Source: Phycisphaerae bacterium (GTDB lineage Bacteria > Planctomycetota > Phycisphaerae > Sedimentisphaerales > Anaerobacaceae). Taken from it: 64,000 nt of DNA. The notes beneath the pieces are model-generated. The model made no database searches. It saw nothing but the letters and a program-made list of their open reading frames with translations, and was not told the origin of the DNA. Below, one piece after another: positions 43,561 to 51,440 of this stretch (within the stretch, counting starts at the first letter, position 1; every line of letters starts with the position of its first letter). Location: contig JAUWBI010000005.1 in NCBI GenBank assembly GCA_030601745.1, positions 1-64,000 of the forward strand. The letters run 5' to 3'. A program made the translations under genes and the position numbers.

Positions 43561-44190
43561 ATGGCCCAGAAAGAACAGGTACTTGTTGTCGAGCGAAAGG
43601 TCCTTGAGCAGGTAGGGATGTTCCAGGGGCTCACATTGGACGTGGACCGGTATCTCCCCAAAATCTTTGCTCAGGGCGTTCCCTGTTTTATGCCGAGGTC
43701 GCAAGCCGAAAAAGACCCCTCCTATAAGCAAATCATTCCCTACGTAATAATGGCTTGTGACGGCAAGTACCTTAACTACGTCAGGGGGACGCGAGCGGGA
43801 GAAACACGGCTCATCGGGAACAGGTCCATCGGCATAGGCGGCCATATAAACCCTACTGATGACATGCCCTTATTCAACGCAAATTTCCGCGAGACCTACC
43901 TCACAGCCGTTGAGCGTGAGGTAGCCGAGGAAGTGTCCGTAGAAACGACATACAGCGACCGTATTGTTGCTCTGCTCAATGACGATTCCAACGAGGTCGG
44001 AAGTGTGCATCTCGGAATAGTCCACTACTGGATTTTGGATGCCCCAAAGGTCAACAAGCGAGAACAGATGATTACCCAGATGGCCTTTATGACACCTGCC
44101 GAGCTGCACGAAGTCCGAGATACTCTCGAGACATGGTCGCAATTGTGCCTTGACAACCTCGGCGAAATGGCGAATAAGAACATAATGTGA
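43561..44190 (+). CDS. Nudix-fold phosphohydrolase-like protein
   Basis: 209 residues. The central part has a stretched Nudix box: SIGIGGHINPTDD, then an insertion, then ETYLTAVEREVAEEVSVE, which supplies the REx2EE-type metal-binding helix. Nudix enzymes hydrolyse nucleoside diphosphates linked to another moiety; the N-terminal 80 residues (PRSQAEKDPSYKQIIPYVIMACDGKYLNYVRG) are typical of a small subfamily often annotated only as phosphoesterase. AAGGAG precedes the ATG. It begins 88 bases after glyA. Substrate unknown. Confidence 0.75.
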   Translation: MAQKEQVLVVERKVLEQVGMFQGLTLDVDRYLPKIFAQGVPCFMPRSQAEKDPSYKQIIPYVIMACDGKYLNYVRGTRAGETRLIGNRSIGIGGHINPTDDMPLFNANFRETYLTAVEREVAEEVSVETTYSDRIVALLNDDSNEVGSVHLGIVHYWILDAPKVNKREQMITQMAFMTPAELHEVRDTLETWSQLCLDNLGEMANKNIM

Positions 44191-44237: not shown

Positions 44238-44930
44238 CATTCTTGAGATTGGGTTTGATTGGGTTTGTTTTCCCGGCGTCTGCGAAGTGGTACATTTTCA
44301 TAATCCTTTGTTAAAATAGAACTTACGTTCATTTGAGTATCCAGCAAATTGGCTTTGTTTTGGCTTTGTTTTTTTGGACTGCGAAATCATCCTATTTTCT
44401 GTAATCCTTTGCTATAAGTGAGTTTACATTCATTTGTGCTTTTCGGAAATTGGCTTTGATTGGCTTTGTTTGGGTTTGTTTTTACCAAGTGTCCAATTGG
44501 ATTTATTTTCATAAGCCACTGTATGAAAAGACTTTACGTTCATTTGACTTTTTCGGAAATTGGCTTTGTTTTGCATAAAAAGGTCGATTTGTAGAGCGTT
44601 CTCGACAGATGTAGAGGTGCCTTATAGGCACGTAAATAACTGGATTCTTGATGCTTGTGAGTGGTTAACTGGTTCATTGGTTATTGGTAATTGACTCCGT
44701 CCAATCTGTCCAGGGGCCGGACTTTCAGCACAACGGGCGCCGGATCTTCGATATTGGTTCATTGGTTAAATGGTACCACTCCCTCTATAAAAGGACGAAC
44801 CTGCGCGTTTGAGTCGAAAATAGTGCTCGATTCTCGATTCCCGATTCTCGTAACTCGATGTGAGAAAAGAAGTTAAGATTTTTTTAAATTTTCCGATTTT
44901 TACTTCTAACTACCCGCGTTTTTGATTGAA
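44238..44930. repeat. Long dispersed intergenic repeat, copy 2, with tandem sub-units
   Basis: Diverged copy of 13318-13880. Here the core (TTAC[AG]TTCATTTG ... GAAATTGGCTTTG) occurs three times at about 44323, 44424 and 44534, a period of 101-110 bases. The end carries the DNA of the (ctcgatt) heptamer array (44826-44860) and an ACTACCCGCGTTTTTGATTGAA segment. No gene is supported in 44191-44930. Confidence 0.75.
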
Positions 44931-44966: not shown

Positions 44967-44995
44967 TTGACATTCTTATGTCTGGCTGGTATTAT
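44967..44995 (+). promoter_or_regulatory. Consensus sigma70-type promoter for the predicted small RNA
   Basis: TTGACA, exactly 17 bases, TATTAT (44990-44995). It has no long ORF after it; a compact hairpin RNA with terminator begins about 10 bases downstream. Confidence 0.65.
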
Positions 44996-45001
44996 TGATT
45001 T

Positions 45002-45064
45002 TCTACAAGCCCTTCCATAGCGGCTCTTCGGGTGTGGAGCCCATATTAGGGGAGGGCTTTTTTT
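45002..45064 (+). ncRNA. Predicted about 60-nt standalone small RNA ending in a terminator
   Basis: After the promoter at 44967 the RNA would fold with an outer stem (45007-45016 with 45050-45059, 10 pairs, one G:U) enclosing a GGCTC/GAGCC hairpin (5 pairs), followed by seven T. I do not recognise the RNA family. From 45065 to 45349 I see only a possible spurious frame; nothing supported. Confidence 0.5.
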
Positions 45065-45349
45065 CTAAAGAAGCGATTGCCTATAAATTTTCATTCGCTG
45101 ATTCCGGAGCATTTGAGGGGCCTTGCCCCCAGACGCCAGCGGCGGTGCCTACGCGGTAGAAGCTGTTTTTGCGCTTGCAAAAAACAATTGCCTTTTCCCA
45201 CTCTTGATGGTACTATTGTCCTGAATCTGGCTATAACAATGCCTATGGAGAAACAACCAAATGGCGAAGTAAATCGTCAATCACAAATCGTCAATCGTTA
45301 ATAGTGAATCCCCAATTGAAAAGGAAAAAAGATAAACTTAAAGTTTGCT

Positions 45350-46075
45350 CTAGGCTCTAAGATCTAGCTTTTGCCCAGTTTCTTTTGTAAGAAGCTCGGC
45401 CATTTCCTCATCATTCGTATGCTTAAGAAAGAGAGCGAAGCATTGATCCTTTATATGCCGACAGTATTTCTCATAGCTTGTAACAGCTTTAAATACAGCT
45501 TTGTTATCGTTCGGAATTGTAATCTTCTTCTCTCCAATCCTGTGGGCATAAATAACGTATTTGGCTTCTGGTCGATTCTTTGCTTTGTAGCGAAAATGCC
45601 GCTTTGGGGAAACAATCATAGTTTGGGAATTTGGATCAAGCTGAAGTTGAGTCCCAGACACCATTATCTTGCGCATGTCTTCATCTTCCACACAACCTCT
45701 AAGAAAATCTTCGGGAAATTTTTTAGTACCCTCTGGCGAAACTTCACTAAGAACCTTTTCGACCAAGGCTTGCTCGTGCTCGGATGGCTCATTGAGGATT
45801 TTCGACAAAGCTGTCCTTCCCACGTCAGCTCTTGATTTTGGTGCCTCCCCTGGCAGGTAAATCATAACACCCCTTTTCACTGGTCTGATTTCTATCTTGC
45901 CTTTGCTAGCAAGTTCCTGTGTTACCTTTACGGGGTCCTCGCCATAATATTCACGGAATGCTTCATTAAAACCACTAAAAACGCAATGGATACCACTTGA
46001 TTTTGAGACATTCCGTAATTTCAAAATGGATCTTTTATAAAAATCTTCGTAACTGAGTTTTTTCTTTTTAGCCAT
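45350..46075 (-). CDS. Fourth gene of the AAA/HerA cassette: possible winged-helix protein
   Basis: 241 residues, basic at the N-terminus (MAKKKKLSYEDFYKRSI). Residues about 28-75 look like a winged helix (CVFSGFNEAFREYYGEDPVKVTQELASKGKIEIRPVKRGVMIYLPGE). The rest is unassigned, with mixed strands (HFRYKAKNRPEAKYVIYAHRI) and a helical C-terminus. No nuclease motif is visible. The ATG overlaps the 3' end of the third gene by 8 bases, indicating translational coupling. Probable DNA- or RNA-binding component of the cassette. Confidence 0.75.
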   Translation of the reverse strand: MAKKKKLSYEDFYKRSILKLRNVSKSSGIHCVFSGFNEAFREYYGEDPVKVTQELASKGKIEIRPVKRGVMIYLPGEAPKSRADVGRTALSKILNEPSEHEQALVEKVLSEVSPEGTKKFPEDFLRGCVEDEDMRKIMVSGTQLQLDPNSQTMIVSPKRHFRYKAKNRPEAKYVIYAHRIGEKKITIPNDNKAVFKAVTSYEKYCRHIKDQCFALFLKHTNDEEMAELLTKETGQKLDLRA

Positions 46076-47330
46076 CTTTACCCACAGTGAATTTCACAAA
46101 GGCCAGAGCCCCCCAACGGTCCACATTAAATCTTACCAGTTCCGGTCTTTCTTTCTGAAGGGACTTAAGCATATCAATACATTCGGCGAGTTCAAAATAA
46201 GTGCCTCTTTCTGTTATGGAATATATCCCCGCAAGAAGGCACACCTCTAATATTGGAGCGTATCCAAGTGGACTTTTAAGTACGATGTAGGCTTTCTGAA
46301 TTGTGGATAGCATCGTTTCTCTATCTATTTTGTGCTCACCATTGAGTACGAGAGCTTTATTTGCCGAATTAAAGAAAGAATGCTGAAGGAAGTGGTCAAT
46401 ACTTTCCGAATTTATAAGTGCCTCGAAAAATGTTTTTGTAGCATCGGTTATCTGATACTGGTAGGCAAAAGGGTTGGGTTTACCAAGGAGGCCGATGTCC
46501 ACAAAGGGTTCGAGCCTTATGGTTATAGCATGCTCTCTAGGATTTTTCCCACCCGGAGCAGACTTCTCTTTCACCGCTTCGATCTTCGCTGCCGTATCAA
46601 GCAGCTTCTGAACTCTCTGAAGATCATCTCCACTTCTTGTTTTTGGTCTATACTCCTTAGAAATGATACGATATATTTCTGGAAGATATTCGCCACACTC
46701 TTTGTCTATGAACCCTTCAGTAATTCCTAGTACTTTCGGATAAAGCCGCCTTAATACATCCCCATCCCCTTCAACAAATGAGAAAAGCAGCAGGATCTTC
46801 TGTTGGACGGTCAAAAAAAAGGGATTTGCTCTTTCTTGGTAAGAAGTATCCCCAGAAATATTAAACGCGTTTTTTTCATCCTCGCTTACAAGTGAGAGTA
46901 AAGCTTGCCCTCTAACTAGAAGGGAATAAGTACCTTTACGCAACAGTCCCAGATCGAGTGCTAAATACACATACCTGTTCCAATCATCGCTAACTAATCT
47001 CCCCCTATGTGAAGGAATATTAGAGTCAGCTAAATAGACATCTTGAATCTCAACTTGAACTTTCAGATTGTCAGAGGTTTCTTCACTAGCTTTGAGGGCC
47101 GCAGCTCGAAGATTTTCGTACTGGGAACTCGTAAGGGATTTTTTTATGTATTCTTGAAGTTGCGGCGTTAATCCAACAGAAACTTTCCGTGAAACCGCAG
47201 TAATCAACTCATTACCCAAGTTGGAAATGCTGTTGGTTGCGGATTTGGACGCGTGCCATAACAAGTGTTTTATAAAACCCACTCTTTGCATTGAACGTCG
47301 AGGATTAACAAATACTCGAATGAATCCCAT
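46068..47330 (-). CDS. Third gene of the AAA/HerA cassette: unknown, helix-rich
   Basis: 420 residues, no signal or membrane segment, AT-rich. It begins MGFIRVFVNPRRSMQRVGF, then polar helices (VGLTPQLQEYIKKSLTSSQYENLRAAALKASEE). Around about 270-310 a strand-turn-strand segment (ITIRLEPFVDIGLLGKPNPFAYQYQITDATKTFFEAL) looks like a winged-helix fold. I cannot name a family. The stop overlaps the next gene by 8 bases and its start shares one base with the HerA-like gene's stop, so it belongs to the same transcription unit. Confidence 0.75.
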   Translation of the reverse strand: MGFIRVFVNPRRSMQRVGFIKHLLWHASKSATNSISNLGNELITAVSRKVSVGLTPQLQEYIKKSLTSSQYENLRAAALKASEETSDNLKVQVEIQDVYLADSNIPSHRGRLVSDDWNRYVYLALDLGLLRKGTYSLLVRGQALLSLVSEDEKNAFNISGDTSYQERANPFFLTVQQKILLLFSFVEGDGDVLRRLYPKVLGITEGFIDKECGEYLPEIYRIISKEYRPKTRSGDDLQRVQKLLDTAAKIEAVKEKSAPGGKNPREHAITIRLEPFVDIGLLGKPNPFAYQYQITDATKTFFEALINSESIDHFLQHSFFNSANKALVLNGEHKIDRETMLSTIQKAYIVLKSPLGYAPILEVCLLAGIYSITERGTYFELAECIDMLKSLQKERPELVRFNVDRWGALAFVKFTVGKDG

Positions 47331-48793
47331 TAGAACGCAAATCCTCCATGTACGCTTACCCGGGGCCGAATATCCATAATAAAAGTTCTGTCCGCCTCAG
47401 TATTAGAAACGATAGCCTGGCCAATATCCAAAGACCTCAACAGATCATTAAAAGATAGGACATTATTGCCGTACTTTACTTCTTTCGGCCATACCGATTT
47501 CATATTGCGCTTTATGTGCTCAATATCACCTTGGACAGTCAGTTTGTGGATTATGAGCGTGTCGATCTGGGCAAGGATTCGCTGATCAATGGCCGATGGC
47601 TGCTGGGTGGTTAACATAAAAGAAAGCCCAGAGTTTCTGCCTTCTCGAACAAGCCTGATCAAAACATCGGTTGCCGTCGTTTTCCGTTCTGAAGGGAGAA
47701 AATTCTGAGCCTCGTCGGCAACAATCCAAGCAGGCGGAATCCCCTCACTGATTTTCTTCCGGATTGTATTTCTTTCATCATCCGTCAGGTTTGGCAAGAT
47801 ACGCAGGTTTTTCTCCATTTCGGAAGTCTCAATGCGGGCTTGCATAATCTTGCGGATCAGGGAGACGATAACAACAAACCGCAGGTCATCGGACATCTTG
47901 TGCAGAAGCAATACACTAAGTTGGCCTGGTTTTAGGAGCGAAATCAACGATGCTCCCTCCCGACACTCCGCACCGAGTCCCTCATCTTCCGACCCTTCGG
48001 CTTTGATATTCCTCCGCTCCAAACCGGTTGGAGTCTTCCGTTTTGGCTGAAACAGCGGGTTGCGCCGGTAGACACTCAGTTGTTGGCGGACGGCTCTTAT
48101 CGTTTCTCTGTGGTAGTCCGCTGAAATCCCTGTATCACCCTGAACACACTCTATTAGGTCCTCGATGCCGTAGCGTGGCTTAGGGCAATAGTTAGACCGG
48201 CCGTCCGTCCAGCCCTCGTTCACAACTTTTTCATACGTCTCATTGAGAAGCTGGCCCATTTTGTCTTGAACGATGTCCCAACCAAAGAGATAGCCCCAGT
48301 CGGAAGCGGTAAAATCCGCGCAGTTAATAGTGAACTCGTTGTATTGTCTGGCGGAGCGTTCCATTCCCCTCGGTGCCCAGATTTGGACATCGAGAGGCTC
48401 ACTCCGAATCTGCCATCCCCTATGGATAAGAGCTTGCTTCCTAATGACTTCGCTATCTGAATCGGGCGATAGAGGGACATTTAACCACTGGAAGATACCC
48501 AACGTATCAAATAGCAGGGCCGCCTGAGTCTTACTAATTGTGGAGATGCTCGTCCTGCTCTCCTTAGTACAGAGCCCCTCAAGGAAACTCCCTAAGCTAT
48601 AAGACTTTCCAGACCCCCTTTTGCCAAAGATGCCAACCACATGAGGAATCGCAAGGTCAAAATCAACCTTAACCAATTGACCTGCTTCAGCAAGCTGGCC
48701 GAGGAAGATATGCTCTTGCCCCTCATCTTGATTCCCGATAAGGATGCGCCTGGTGTGGCTTAGTTTAGGTTTCACCGTAAACTTCTTCATCAC
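47330..48793 (-). CDS. HerA/DUF87-type ATPase
   Basis: 487 residues. Walker A GKRGSGKS at about 57-64 (VVGIFGKRGSGKSYSLGSFLEGL) and Walker B/ADEAQNF at about 355-362 (PPAWIVADEAQNFLP), then LTTQQPSAIDQRILAQIDTLIIHKL, the arginine-finger region of the HerA/VirB4 branch. HerA-type motors form hexamers that pump DNA, and in bacteria many belong to phage-defence cassettes with nucleases, SIR2 or DUF4297 partners. No such partner domain is fused here. The gene starts two bases after the AAA gene ends, and stops at the start of the third gene. Confidence 0.85.
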   Translation of the reverse strand: MMKKFTVKPKLSHTRRILIGNQDEGQEHIFLGQLAEAGQLVKVDFDLAIPHVVGIFGKRGSGKSYSLGSFLEGLCTKESRTSISTISKTQAALLFDTLGIFQWLNVPLSPDSDSEVIRKQALIHRGWQIRSEPLDVQIWAPRGMERSARQYNEFTINCADFTASDWGYLFGWDIVQDKMGQLLNETYEKVVNEGWTDGRSNYCPKPRYGIEDLIECVQGDTGISADYHRETIRAVRQQLSVYRRNPLFQPKRKTPTGLERRNIKAEGSEDEGLGAECREGASLISLLKPGQLSVLLLHKMSDDLRFVVIVSLIRKIMQARIETSEMEKNLRILPNLTDDERNTIRKKISEGIPPAWIVADEAQNFLPSERKTTATDVLIRLVREGRNSGLSFMLTTQQPSAIDQRILAQIDTLIIHKLTVQGDIEHIKRNMKSVWPKEVKYGNNVLSFNDLLRSLDIGQAIVSNTEADRTFIMDIRPRVSVHGGFAF

Positions 48794-48795
48794 AA

Positions 48796-49959
48796 TTATC
48801 CAAACACAAGAGGAGCGACCTCATTGATAATATTCAGTCCAATGATATGCTTTCTCTCGTACCAGGCCGAGATTGCACATTCATTTACAGCCTTTATTAG
48901 GTTTCGAGGGAGAGCTTTTATTAGGTCCTGCGAAGCAAACTCACACAACGTATCAAAAGCCTCTGTCGTAAACGGATAGGTTTCGAGCCTCACTGAAAGA
49001 GATTCGTCTTGAATCTTCTTCTCTGCTTCTTTTTGCTTAATTAGTTGCTTTAAAAGTTCTTTCAAGAATATCTGTATATCTTTAACGGAAGGTAGAGGAG
49101 GAATCTCAATGAAGTTATTTTCTCCTATGCGTGTCCGTATGTCAGATCTAACAATAATCTCTGCCATGTCATCCCTTGTCAGTGCATATGCTGATAAGAT
49201 GAAGCCCAATGATGCATTCCAAGGCTCGGATAACTTTCTTAAATAGGTATGAATTGATTCAGATTGGTCACCTGTCTTAATTCTTGTGAAGTGCTCTGCC
49301 TCGTCCATTAGGAATATTAGTCTTTTCCCGTTACGCTCAGCCAGTCGTCCAATCCCTATCAAGGTCTTTACCATGTCCCCTGCTCCAATATCCCCGAGAC
49401 TTCTCGTCACTCGTAATCGCTCCAGTTCCGATGTTGTCATTTTCCTCCCACAAAGCCATCTCCAAGTAAGGTGCGCAATCTCACCACCTGCTCTTAAATT
49501 TTTTGTAGCTTCCGCTAAATTGTTGTCCCGAAAAACGCTTTTCAGTTCATTATCTAGATTTTGAACGCTATCAAAAAGGTGATCCATCCATTGCGAAACA
49601 ACTTCTTTTCCTAATGTTTCCAAAATTTGAACATGCCAATCACTACAATCTGACTTGCTATGCATTTCAAGATCAAGGTGCAGTATTAGAGGTTCCTCTT
49701 TACATGCCTCTGGCTTATCATTTAGCAAGACATGTTTAATATGATACAACGTCTGTGTCTTTCCAGAACCATAAGAACCAAAAATTATCATCTTCGGCAC
49801 CCCTGGCTCTACAAACGAACGCCTCAACTGTGCCTTAATGTTCTCAAACTTTTCATCTCGTCCAAAATAAAACTTTGCATCGTCAGGGTTCACCTTGGCA
49901 TCAATCGTGAAGCTATCCCGCTTATCCAGGCAAAACCATTTTTTAAACTCCATAGCCAT
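48796..49959 (-). CDS. First gene of the cassette: Orc/AAA-like P-loop ATPase
   Basis: 387 residues. Walker A GSYGSGKT (61-68, KMIIFGSYGSGKTQTLYH), Walker B LIFLMDE (214-220, KRLIFLMDEAEHFTRI), sensor-1-like ILSAYALTRDDM and an Arg-rich SDIRTRIG segment. A C-terminal helical region (VNECAISAWYERKHIIGLNI) may be a winged helix. The layout resembles Orc/Cdc6-like or KAP/ExeA-type switch ATPases that load or gate partner motors. GGAGGT lies 7 bases before the ATG and a sigma70-like promoter at 50031-50059 precedes it. It is the first of four packed genes. Confidence 0.85.
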   Translation of the reverse strand: MAMEFKKWFCLDKRDSFTIDAKVNPDDAKFYFGRDEKFENIKAQLRRSFVEPGVPKMIIFGSYGSGKTQTLYHIKHVLLNDKPEACKEEPLILHLDLEMHSKSDCSDWHVQILETLGKEVVSQWMDHLFDSVQNLDNELKSVFRDNNLAEATKNLRAGGEIAHLTWRWLCGRKMTTSELERLRVTRSLGDIGAGDMVKTLIGIGRLAERNGKRLIFLMDEAEHFTRIKTGDQSESIHTYLRKLSEPWNASLGFILSAYALTRDDMAEIIVRSDIRTRIGENNFIEIPPLPSVKDIQIFLKELLKQLIKQKEAEKKIQDESLSVRLETYPFTTEAFDTLCEFASQDLIKALPRNLIKAVNECAISAWYERKHIIGLNIINEVAPLVFG

Positions 49960-50030
49960 AATATTACCTCCGTTTATATTTCACCTTCTTTACGAGCTTC
50001 CAGCAAATACTACTTCCTTTTTCACACTAT

Positions 50031-50059
50031 ATAATACCCAAACCCGCAATTCCCGTCAA
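50031..50059 (-). promoter_or_regulatory. Predicted promoter of the AAA/HerA cassette
   Basis: On the minus strand TTGACG (50059-50054), 17 bases, TATTAT (50036-50031), giving a leader of about 65 bases to the ATG at 49959. Confidence 0.6.
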
Positions 50060-50122: not shown

Positions 50123-50315
50123 CCAATTTTGCTTTTTAATCTTTGATTTTTGATTTTCCCTCCTATTCGAATATCCGTTCTAAAGGCGTGTTATTTTGCA
50201 TAAAAATAGCCGGTTTTTATGGTTACTTTTTCGCAAGTGGAATGTAAAATCAGCCGAGCAGAGAATTGTGTTGCAGATTACAAAGTGAAAGGCAAATTTG
50301 GGGGCATTGTATAAG

Positions 50316-51440
50316 ATGAGCGAAGGTAAATTAAAAACCGCGGTACTCGGCCTCAATGACCAGGGCCGGCTCCTGCTCGAAGCGGCCTCGAAAATTGATT
50401 ATTTCGAGATTGCGGCCGTCGCCGACAAAGACAGCACGCTCGCCGAAAGAGTCGCCGCGGAATACAAATGTGCGGCCTATGACGATTACCGGCAGCTAAT
50501 AACAGCAATGGATTCCCGCCCCCGGTCGGAGTCGAGGACAAGCTTGCGCGGAGACAACGGCTGTCTGCTGGTTGCCGCTGGTATGTATAGCTGCGAGAAG
50601 CAAGTTCGAGCGGCGATGAAGAAGAAATTCAATATACTCAAGCTGGCACCGGCGGCGAGGAATTTTGAAGAGGCGGCGGAGTTTGTCCGGCTGGCCGAAG
50701 ATGAAAACATCAAATTTGCCGTTGCCAATCCCAGTCGGTTCGCCCAAAGTTTTCTCGCTTTTCGCCAGTTTTTGCAACAAGGCCGGATTGAACAAGTTTT
50801 TCTGATAACCGCCTTTTGCAATGTTGGCGACCAGCCGCACCGGGACCCCAAACACAATAGTGTGCGTTTGGGAACCCAGCCTGCCTGGCAGACTGACCCG
50901 AAACTGGCCGGCGGCGGAGTGCTGCTGCGCAACTGTTACGAGATAATCGACCAGATAATCTGGAACTTTCCCACGCCAGAGCAGGTTTATTCATTAAACA
51001 CAAACCAGGCGGCAGATAGACAACAGCGGCTCTATTTGACAGAAGATACCGCTGTTGTAACGATGAAGTTTAGCGACACTCTTATCGGCAATCTGATAGC
51101 GAGCAAGGCCTTTGGGCCAGGACAGAAACTTTTGAAAGTCTACGGCAAAGATAAAATTTTGACCGTCAGCAATAAGCAACTTACCGTCAGCGATGGGCTT
51201 GGGCAGAGAAGCGAGGAATGGGAATACGACGACGACGAGCTCGGCTGGTATACAGCCCTACTGGAAAATTTTTCTCTAAGTATATTGTCGCCGGATGAAA
51301 ACAAGCTCTGCAGCAGCGGCAGAGAGAACCTGAAGAATATGGCGGTCATTGAATCAGCTTATCTTTCGGCGCGGACGGCTATGCCGGAAGAGCCCGGCAG
51401 GATTCTGCAGATGGCACAGATCGAGCCGACAAGTATTTAG
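50316..51440 (+). CDS. Gfo/Idh/MocA-type oxidoreductase
   Basis: 374 residues from the ATG at 50316 (a TTG at 50298 is in frame). N-terminal Rossmann fold (LKTAVLGLNDQGRLLLEAA, FEIAAVADKD, AAEYKCAAYDDYRQLI), NAD-binding with a non-standard GxNxxG. Mid region FNILKLAPAARNFEEAAEFVRLAEDENIKFAVANPSRF corresponds to the catalytic Lys-Pro segment but with KLAPAAR instead of EKP, so activity may be altered. The C-terminal alpha/beta domain follows. A degenerate REP element (50510-50560) adds about 17 residues (DSRPRSESRTSLRGDNG) in the N-terminal fold. Family members oxidise sugars or cyclic polyols. Convergent, overlapping the M48 gene by 4 bases. Confidence 0.8.
   Translation: MSEGKLKTAVLGLNDQGRLLLEAASKIDYFEIAAVADKDSTLAERVAAEYKCAAYDDYRQLITAMDSRPRSESRTSLRGDNGCLLVAAGMYSCEKQVRAAMKKKFNILKLAPAARNFEEAAEFVRLAEDENIKFAVANPSRFAQSFLAFRQFLQQGRIEQVFLITAFCNVGDQPHRDPKHNSVRLGTQPAWQTDPKLAGGGVLLRNCYEIIDQIIWNFPTPEQVYSLNTNQAADRQQRLYLTEDTAVVTMKFSDTLIGNLIASKAFGPGQKLLKVYGKDKILTVSNKQLTVSDGLGQRSEEWEYDDDELGWYTALLENFSLSILSPDENKLCSSGRENLKNMAVIESAYLSARTAMPEEPGRILQMAQIEPTSI
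50510..50560. repeat. Degenerate REP family A element inside the Gfo/Idh gene
   Basis: Starts GGATTCCCGCC and continues CCCGGTCGGAGTCGAGGACAAG, then a decayed right arm (GCGCGGAGACAACGG, compare GCGGGAATGAC). Read in frame. Confidence 0.65.

What the first reader, a model, noticed from the sequence alone, without database searches (positions are those of the whole stretch)
45350..50059. Four-gene AAA ATPase / HerA-like ATPase cassette of unknown function
Seen: four minus-strand genes with 2-base gap, 1-base overlap and 8-base overlap, under one good promoter (50031-50059). They encode an Orc/AAA-like ATPase (Walker A GSYGSGKT, Walker B LIFLMDE), a HerA/DUF87 motor, a 420-residue helix-rich unknown and a 241-residue possible winged-helix protein. 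It is flanked by repeat-rich spacers. Known: HerA-type ATPases are common in bacterial anti-phage cassettes with SIR2, DUF4297 or nuclease partners. Inference: this may be a defence or DNA-processing system that uses two ATPases and two unrecognised partners instead.
Basis: partly seen in the sequence, partly recalled or inferred. Interest (0 to 1): 0.85.

Follow-up and report, generated by a model that had tools for sequence, protein, structure and literature searches.

The report
Two-motor DNA-restriction cassette, new variant
Four overlapping genes in a planctomycete encode an ATP-driven protein set whose relatives sit, in other bacteria and on a virus-like element, beside DNA-marking enzymes and a DNA-cutting enzyme, so it is most likely a mobile anti-virus system of a recently recognised general type but with a gene combination that I did not find described.

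Summary
In detail: four tightly packed minus-strand genes, A (ORC/BrxD-like AAA ATPase), B (HerA/DUF87 motor), C (420 aa, no family) and D (241 aa, no family). A, B and C form a real unit: all seven distinct loci that I found with this HerA type (six planctomycete genomes, one prophage-like contig) also carry A and C in the same gene cluster. The unit is rare (4 of 392 sampled planctomycete genomes). In the window it is a lineage-specific insert: relatives carry the same two flanking genes with 0.26-1.1 kb, or other genes, between them. Elsewhere the trio neighbours DNA-modification enzymes in five of six loci (SspABCD phosphorothioation, a type IIG-like methyltransferase, C5 methylase, HsdM/HsdS, GNAT-ABC protein) and a small PLD nuclease in four of six. 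In one it fills the slot that SspFGH occupies in other Ssp operons. D's C-terminal domain is the tail of type IIG restriction enzymes; in the prophage it ends three different proteins. Best reading: a HerA/FtsK-capture-type restriction module, new variant of a known kind, coupled to exchangeable DNA marks. The window copy lacks a recognisable nuclease or modification enzyme, so its own activity is unproven. No function was tested.

The parts
48796..49959 (-). Gene A: 387-aa ORC/BrxD-like AAA ATPase (Walker A 61-68, Walker B D219 E220)
   Evidence: Pfam BrxC_BrxD 7e-7, AAA_16 9e-5; 46% identical without gaps over 385 aa to the prophage homologue; related to the AAA protein of haloarchaeal 7-deazaguanine (Dpd-type) clusters, E 1.8e-27 in a small comparison set
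47330..48793 (-). Gene B: 487-aa HerA/DUF87-type motor; Walker A GKRGSGKS, Walker B DEAQ, invariant C-terminal RPRxxxHGG; likely start at 48790
   Evidence: DUF87 2e-7; PADLOC mad8 4e-20; 54% identical to the prophage copy; tree places the trio HerAs with the Haloplanus BRC-type HerA, 100/99; motifs intact
46068..47330 (-). Gene C: 420-aa fast-evolving partner, no known family
   Evidence: No family in four libraries; homologues in all seven loci, 16-35% identical to the window copy; structure model unusable, pLDDT 36.5
45350..46075 (-). Gene D: 241 aa; N-terminal domain of possible winged-helix type plus C-terminal tail domain
   Evidence: Tail homologous to the C-terminus of a type IIG-like methyltransferase (3e-17) and of a PC4 protein (9e-16); N-terminal secondary structure fits a winged helix, but the model is weak, pLDDT 57
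45350..45775 (-). Tail domain of D (about residues 100-241), the only copy detected in this genome
   Evidence: Profile search of the own genome finds one copy only; elsewhere it is the C-terminus of ~1150-aa type IIG-like enzymes
50031..50059 (-). Possible promoter TTGACG-17-TATTAT
   Evidence: 10 of 12 consensus matches, but such sites are not enriched over shuffles
43561..44190 (+). Left flank gene, conserved (Nudix-like by eye; no Pfam hit); marks the insertion interval
   Evidence: Adjacent to the right flank gene in at least eight family genomes
50313..51440 (+). Right flank gene, GFO/IDH/MocA-type oxidoreductase
   Evidence: Pfam GFO_IDH_MocA_C 2.6e-11; synteny

Best explanation
A, B and C are the core of a mobile anti-invader restriction module that works in the manner of the proposed HerA/FtsK capture systems. 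Inferred steps: the ORC/BrxD-like ATPase A, helped by the fast-evolving adaptor C, loads or licenses the HerA-type ring B on DNA that lacks the host's mark. B then pumps that DNA to an effector. In four related loci the effector would be the neighbouring PLD nuclease. The mark is exchangeable (phosphorothioate, adenine or cytosine methylation, possibly an acyl-type modification). D would link the core to DNA or to a modification enzyme through its tail domain. Shown: the gene unit, intact ATPase motifs, recurrence, insertion at a variable site, and the neighbouring modification and nuclease genes. Not shown: complex formation, translocation, cleavage, or protection. The window copy has no detected nuclease or modification enzyme, so it may act with trans-encoded partners, act without cutting, or be a reduced copy.
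For: A+B+C profiles match in all seven loci. The unit is rare: HerA type in 4 of 392 phylum genomes and 3 of 249 in one class; C absent from the 147 other genomes of a relatives search. Insertion: the same flank pair is empty, or holds other genes, in eight family members; GC3 of A, C and D is 37-39% against 52-62% in neighbours. Mobile context: prophage-like contig with integrase, terminase and portal genes; integrase beside the G407 locus. Modification neighbours: SspABCD and TIGR04096, Eco57I/N6 MTase, C5 MTase and HsdM/HsdS, GNAT-ABC. Nuclease: PLD in four loci with H-x-K...GSxN conserved. In the prophage the IIG-like enzyme lost its PD...ExK nuclease residues, which three standalone relatives keep. 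The trio cluster lies in the slot that SspFGH fills in a normal Ssp operon. The general HerA/FtsK + ORC/Cdc6 capture mechanism is proposed in PMC10853773 and PMC12839542.
Against: No experiment. The window copy has no nuclease and no modification enzyme beside it; no PLD match in its genome (a negative without positive control, genome 87% complete). Only seven loci, six of them in one phylum, found by HerA-first searches. Modification genes are common in defence islands, so adjacency alone is weak. No defence genes were recognised right beside the window cassette. Fold and role of C are unknown.
Confidence: 0.6

Rival explanations
1. The window copy is a reduced or orphan remnant: it lost (or never gained) the modification enzyme and PLD nuclease and now does little, or acts only as a regulator of incoming DNA.
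For: No second tail-domain protein and no PLD match in the own genome; no modification gene beside it, unlike five of the other six loci.
Against: All four frames are open and packed with overlaps; ATPase motifs intact; A aligns with the prophage copy without a gap over 385 residues.
Confidence: 0.2
2. It is a DNA-processing or transfer module of a mobile element (segregation, packaging or conjugation motor) and not a defence system.
For: HerA/FtsK motors serve such tasks; one copy lies on a prophage-like element; PMC10853773 notes capture of such motors from mobile elements.
Against: The trio sits with several unrelated DNA-marking systems and restriction-type nucleases; the window copy has no relaxase, pilus or capsid genes beside it.
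Confidence: 0.12
3. A non-nucleolytic defence: the two motors alone displace proteins or block replication and transcription of unmarked DNA; the nuclease is an optional booster.
For: The window, G350 and G407 loci have the trio without a PLD gene; SspFGH was reported to suppress phage DNA replication without visible degradation products (PMC8092258).
Against: Four of seven loci have the PLD nuclease in the gene cluster; G350 has a NOV_C protein, which in PADLOC matches defence proteins, and G407 a 478-aa protein of unknown role.
Confidence: 0.15
4. A housekeeping DNA-repair set, like the archaeal HerA-NurA pair.
For: B is a HerA relative (NCBIfam HerA 1e-14).
Against: Absent from close relatives; trio HerAs form a separate clade from NurA-linked HerAs; no NurA, Mre11 or Rad50 beside it.
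Confidence: 0.03

Closest known systems
HerA/FtsK capture systems with ORC/Cdc6 ATPase (NAR 2024, PMC10853773)
   Same: ORC/Cdc6-clade AAA ATPase plus HerA/FtsK motor plus fast-evolving, possibly winged-helix proteins in mobile neighbourhoods; proposed to intercept invader DNA
   Different: That class is described with an inactive REase inserted in the AAA protein and an active REase; neither was seen here. Related loci use a PLD nuclease instead, and the tail domain of type IIG enzymes is recruited
BREX-Related Capture (BRC) systems (NAR 2026, PMC12839542); the Haloplanus HW8-1 plasmid locus looks like one
   Same: Its HerA falls in the same clade as the trio HerAs, beside a GNAT gene as in G376
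   Different: The window has no PglZ, no BrxC-like large ATPase, no DUF4007
SspFGH effector of SspABCD phosphorothioation (PMC8092258)
   Same: Three genes, a Walker A protein plus an FtsK/HerA-like motor plus a third protein; same operon slot in G667
   Different: No homology beyond ATPase motifs: C against SspG E 0.2-0.8; SspH is about 1770 aa, B is 487
DndFGH
   Same: Motor plus two partner proteins; translocation-coupled nicking (PMC11662687)
   Different: B matches only the HerA end of DndH; no DndF or DndG match
MADS (PADLOC mad1-mad8)
   Same: B's best PADLOC match is mad8, E 4e-20
   Different: No match of A, C or D to other mad models (A to mad8 only, 0.0015)
BREX type 2 BrxD and the AAA protein of haloarchaeal 7-deazaguanine (Dpd-type) clusters
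   Same: A belongs to this ATPase group
   Different: No HerA next to the Dpd-type AAA genes in the four loci read
Type IIG (Eco57I-like) restriction-modification enzymes
   Same: Their C-terminal tail domain is D's C-terminal domain
   Different: D has no methyltransferase or nuclease

Membership tests
HerA/FtsK capture system (ORC/Cdc6 type) | HerA/FtsK ATPase with intact motifs | tested here: met
   DUF87 2e-7; Walker A and B conserved in seven loci
HerA/FtsK capture system (ORC/Cdc6 type) | ORC/Cdc6-clade AAA ATPase in the same operon | tested here: met
   BrxC_BrxD 7e-7, ORC-CDC6-like 0.015; best PDB profile hits RuvB and ORC, weak, 0.005
HerA/FtsK capture system (ORC/Cdc6 type) | Inactive REase inserted between AAA core and C-terminal wHTH | tested here: not met
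   A is 387 aa with no REase match and little room after the AAA core; judged from length and profiles, not from a structure
HerA/FtsK capture system (ORC/Cdc6 type) | Active REase in the operon | tested here: not met
   No nuclease family in A-D; relatives carry PLD nuclease instead
HerA/FtsK capture system (ORC/Cdc6 type) | wHTH protein, fast-evolving 2-4 wHTH protein in a subset | tested here: inconclusive
   C model pLDDT 36.5; D N-terminus winged-helix-like at pLDDT about 60, no significant fold match
BRC system | PglZ, DUF6079/BrxC, STAND NTPase and DUF4007 present | tested here: not met
   None among the four genes; neighbours are the two flank genes
BRC system | HerA of the BRC clade | tested here: met
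   Haloplanus HerA groups with the trio HerAs, 100/99, on a long branch
SspFGH | Sequence homology to SspF, SspG and SspH | tested here: not met
   Only P-loop or Walker B stretches match
SspFGH | Encoded with sspBCD | tested here: not met
   Not beside the window cassette; met only for G667
MADS | mad1-mad8 set | tested here: not met
   Only mad8-like B
DndFGH | DndF, DndG and multi-domain DndH | tested here: not met
   Only the HerA end of DndH matches B
HerA-NurA repair / HerA-SIR2 / HerA-DUF4297 | NurA, SIR2 or DUF4297 partner | tested here: not met
   No such domain in A, C or D
Anti-phage defence system | Protection against phage or plasmid | not testable with these tools
   Needs expression and plaque assays

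The most novel reading that the evidence does not exclude
A-B-C is a plug-in restriction core that is reused with chemically different self marks (phosphorothioate, methyladenine, methylcytosine, perhaps Mom-like acyl marks). A tail domain taken from type IIG enzymes serves as a docking tag that joins methyltransferase, single-strand-binding (PC4), modified-base-reading (HARE-HTH) and winged-helix proteins to that core.
Probability: 0.3. Interest if true: 0.8.

Novelty: new variant of a known kind. Interest (0 to 1): 0.6.

Why it matters
If right, one compact motor pair is combined with several unrelated DNA-marking chemistries, which makes the open question of how such motors sense the absence of a mark directly testable by swapping modules. 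It also offers a new protein family (C) and a recurrent tail domain (D) as handles for finding further defence systems that current libraries miss: PADLOC 2023 had no model for C or D, and A matched only distantly.

Tried and rejected
C in plasmids and viral contigs: nothing. B in annotated phages: nothing. The single genome-contig scan with the two-sequence HerA alignment found only the locus already known. L035 hit of the AAA alignment: a chance match inside a terminase-like gene. NurA-linked haloarchaeal HerAs and five viral HerAs fall outside the trio clade. Structure of C unusable, so no fold search was run on it; D fold search gave no match below E 0.36. PDB sequence profiles of C and of the tail gave nothing significant. 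SspFGH orthology tested and rejected. Short standalone tail proteins in related planctomycetes have no trio beside them. Paper searches for MADS by its full name found nothing useful.
Full report
WHAT IS THERE. A is a 387-aa AAA ATPase of the ORC/BrxD group, B a 487-aa HerA/DUF87 motor; C and D match nothing convincing in Pfam, PADLOC, NCBIfam or PHROGs. The promoter is unremarkable statistically. The spacer repeats are real: three ~110-nt direct copies at 44247-44573.

A, B AND C ARE A UNIT. Searching planctomycete genomes with C, then with HerA alignments, gave six further distinct loci: G350 (L007), G407 (L015), G376 (L016), G611 (L020), G667 (L021) and a 49.6-kb IMG/VR contig, G739 (L022, L030, L031). 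Profiles of A, B and C each match in all seven loci, with the three genes in one gene cluster each time. Identities to the window are 17-46% for A, 33-54% for B and 16-35% for C, so the unit is old and C evolves fastest. ATPase motifs are intact throughout, except that the Walker B glutamate of A is Gln in G350 and G407. The HerA tree groups all seven with a haloarchaeal HerA from a BrxC/PglZ/GNAT locus (100/99), apart from NurA-linked and viral HerAs. The haloarchaeal row and G667 have long branches, so their exact places are unsure.

IT IS A LINEAGE-SPECIFIC INSERT. C was absent from the 147 other genomes in a search of close relatives, and the HerA type was in 4 of 392 sampled phylum genomes, the window's own included. 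The two genes that flank the cassette are adjacent and in the same orientation in G042 (256 bases between them), G013, G051 and G037 (about 1.0-1.1 kb). In G005, G052, G017 and G040 the same interval holds 2.8-4.9 kb of other genes; in G040 these include an HD-domain (dGTPase-like) protein, an N6-adenine methyltransferase-like protein and an HNH/AP2 protein. GC3 of A, C and D is 37-39% against 52-62% in the neighbouring genes measured; B is 54%.

NEIGHBOURS IN OTHER LOCI. G739 carries phage terminase (GpA-type), portal and integrase genes beside the cassette. There the order is PLD nuclease, A, B, C, an Eco57I-type N6 methyltransferase, a 530-aa protein, a PC4 protein and a HARE-HTH protein. 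G667 has a complete SspA(IscS)-SspB-SspC-SspD set (PADLOC E 1e-88 to 1e-170 for B-D; aminotransferase class V for the first gene), then a second AAA gene, PLD, A, B, C, further genes, and the phosphorothioation-associated methyltransferase TIGR04096 (2.9e-173). In an ordinary Ssp operon (Azospirillum plasmid) the space between SspD and TIGR04096 is filled by SspF, SspG and SspH. Direct profile comparison shows that A, B and C are not orthologues of SspFGH, so this looks like one effector replacing another. G350 has a C5 methylase upstream and a GHKL protein, an unclassified protein and a NOV_C protein downstream. G407 has an integrase, two further BrxC/D-type ATPases and HsdM/HsdS. G376 has a GNAT-ABC fusion overlapping B and a PLD nuclease between C and A. 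G611 has a PLD nuclease and BrxD-like genes but no modification enzyme in the stretch read. The four PLD proteins share H-x-K and GSxN.

D AND ITS TAIL DOMAIN. D's C-terminal ~140 residues match the C-terminus of the prophage methyltransferase (BLASTP 3e-17) and of the PC4 protein (9e-16); the HARE-HTH protein carries it too. Elsewhere in planctomycetes the same domain ends standalone type IIG-like enzymes of ~1150-1200 aa, or short proteins, with no trio beside those that were read with flanks. Three standalone enzymes compared keep PD...ExK-type nuclease residues at the N-terminus; the prophage enzyme, which sits beside the trio and a PLD nuclease, has lost them (TVLIC / AVVLMTAP). This fits handing the cutting role to the trio plus PLD, but it is one case. 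The own genome has a single tail copy (D) and no PLD match; the genome is 87% complete and the PLD negative has no positive control.

HOW IT MOST LIKELY WORKS. Published comparative work proposes HerA/FtsK capture systems, in which an ORC/Cdc6 ATPase places the apparatus, winged-helix proteins recognise DNA, and the HerA motor pumps invader DNA to a nuclease (PMC10853773), and BRC systems that join HerA with BREX and Dpd parts (PMC12839542). The window trio fits this logic: A as loader or gate, B as pump, C as fast-evolving reader or adaptor, D as link to DNA or to a modification enzyme. The effector and the mark are exchangeable. All of this beyond gene content is inference. The window copy lacks a visible nuclease and marker, so it may depend on partners elsewhere, act without cutting, or be reduced.

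KNOWN OR NEW. It works like a HerA/FtsK capture system but fails two described features of the ORC/Cdc6 class (inserted inactive REase, active REase) and fails BRC, SspFGH, DndFGH and MADS membership (see table). I found no description of the A-B-C-PLD combination or of the shared tail domain in the two closest papers; only passages found by term search were read, and their supplementary data were not read, so prior description there cannot be excluded. Hence 'new variant of a known kind'.

LIMITS. Seven loci, HerA-first sampling, six of the seven from one phylum; adjacency to modification genes was not compared with a background rate; no structure for C.

Noticed in passing
window 44967-45067 (+): A TTGACA-17-TATTAT promoter-like site (11 of 12, TG before the second hexamer) is followed at once by a ~55-nt stem-loop and a T-run (MFE -27.1, z -3.2): a possible small RNA or stand-alone terminator. 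No Rfam match and no clear copy in syntenic relatives.
   Followed up: partly
window 47330-48793: GC3 of the HerA gene is 54% while its operon partners are 37-39%; in the other six loci the trio genes differ by 10 points or less. This may mean that the HerA gene was exchanged separately.
   Followed up: no
L021:14558-17369: In G667 the GHKL/MORC-like 599-aa protein and the following 317-aa protein share a C-terminal segment (AWARLE ... DWGR.AR; seen by eye), a second case of neighbouring proteins with one common tail.
   Followed up: no
L086 (G040): The same chromosomal interval as the window cassette holds HD-domain, N6-adenine methyltransferase-like and HNH/AP2 genes: the interval may be a small defence or mobile-gene hotspot.
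   Followed up: partly
L051-L054: Haloarchaeal plasmid 7-deazaguanine (TGT) clusters carry a conserved pair: an AAA gene related to A and a preceding ~300-aa unnamed gene.
   Followed up: partly
window 44247-44573: Three ~110-nt direct repeats just after the left flank gene.
   Followed up: no
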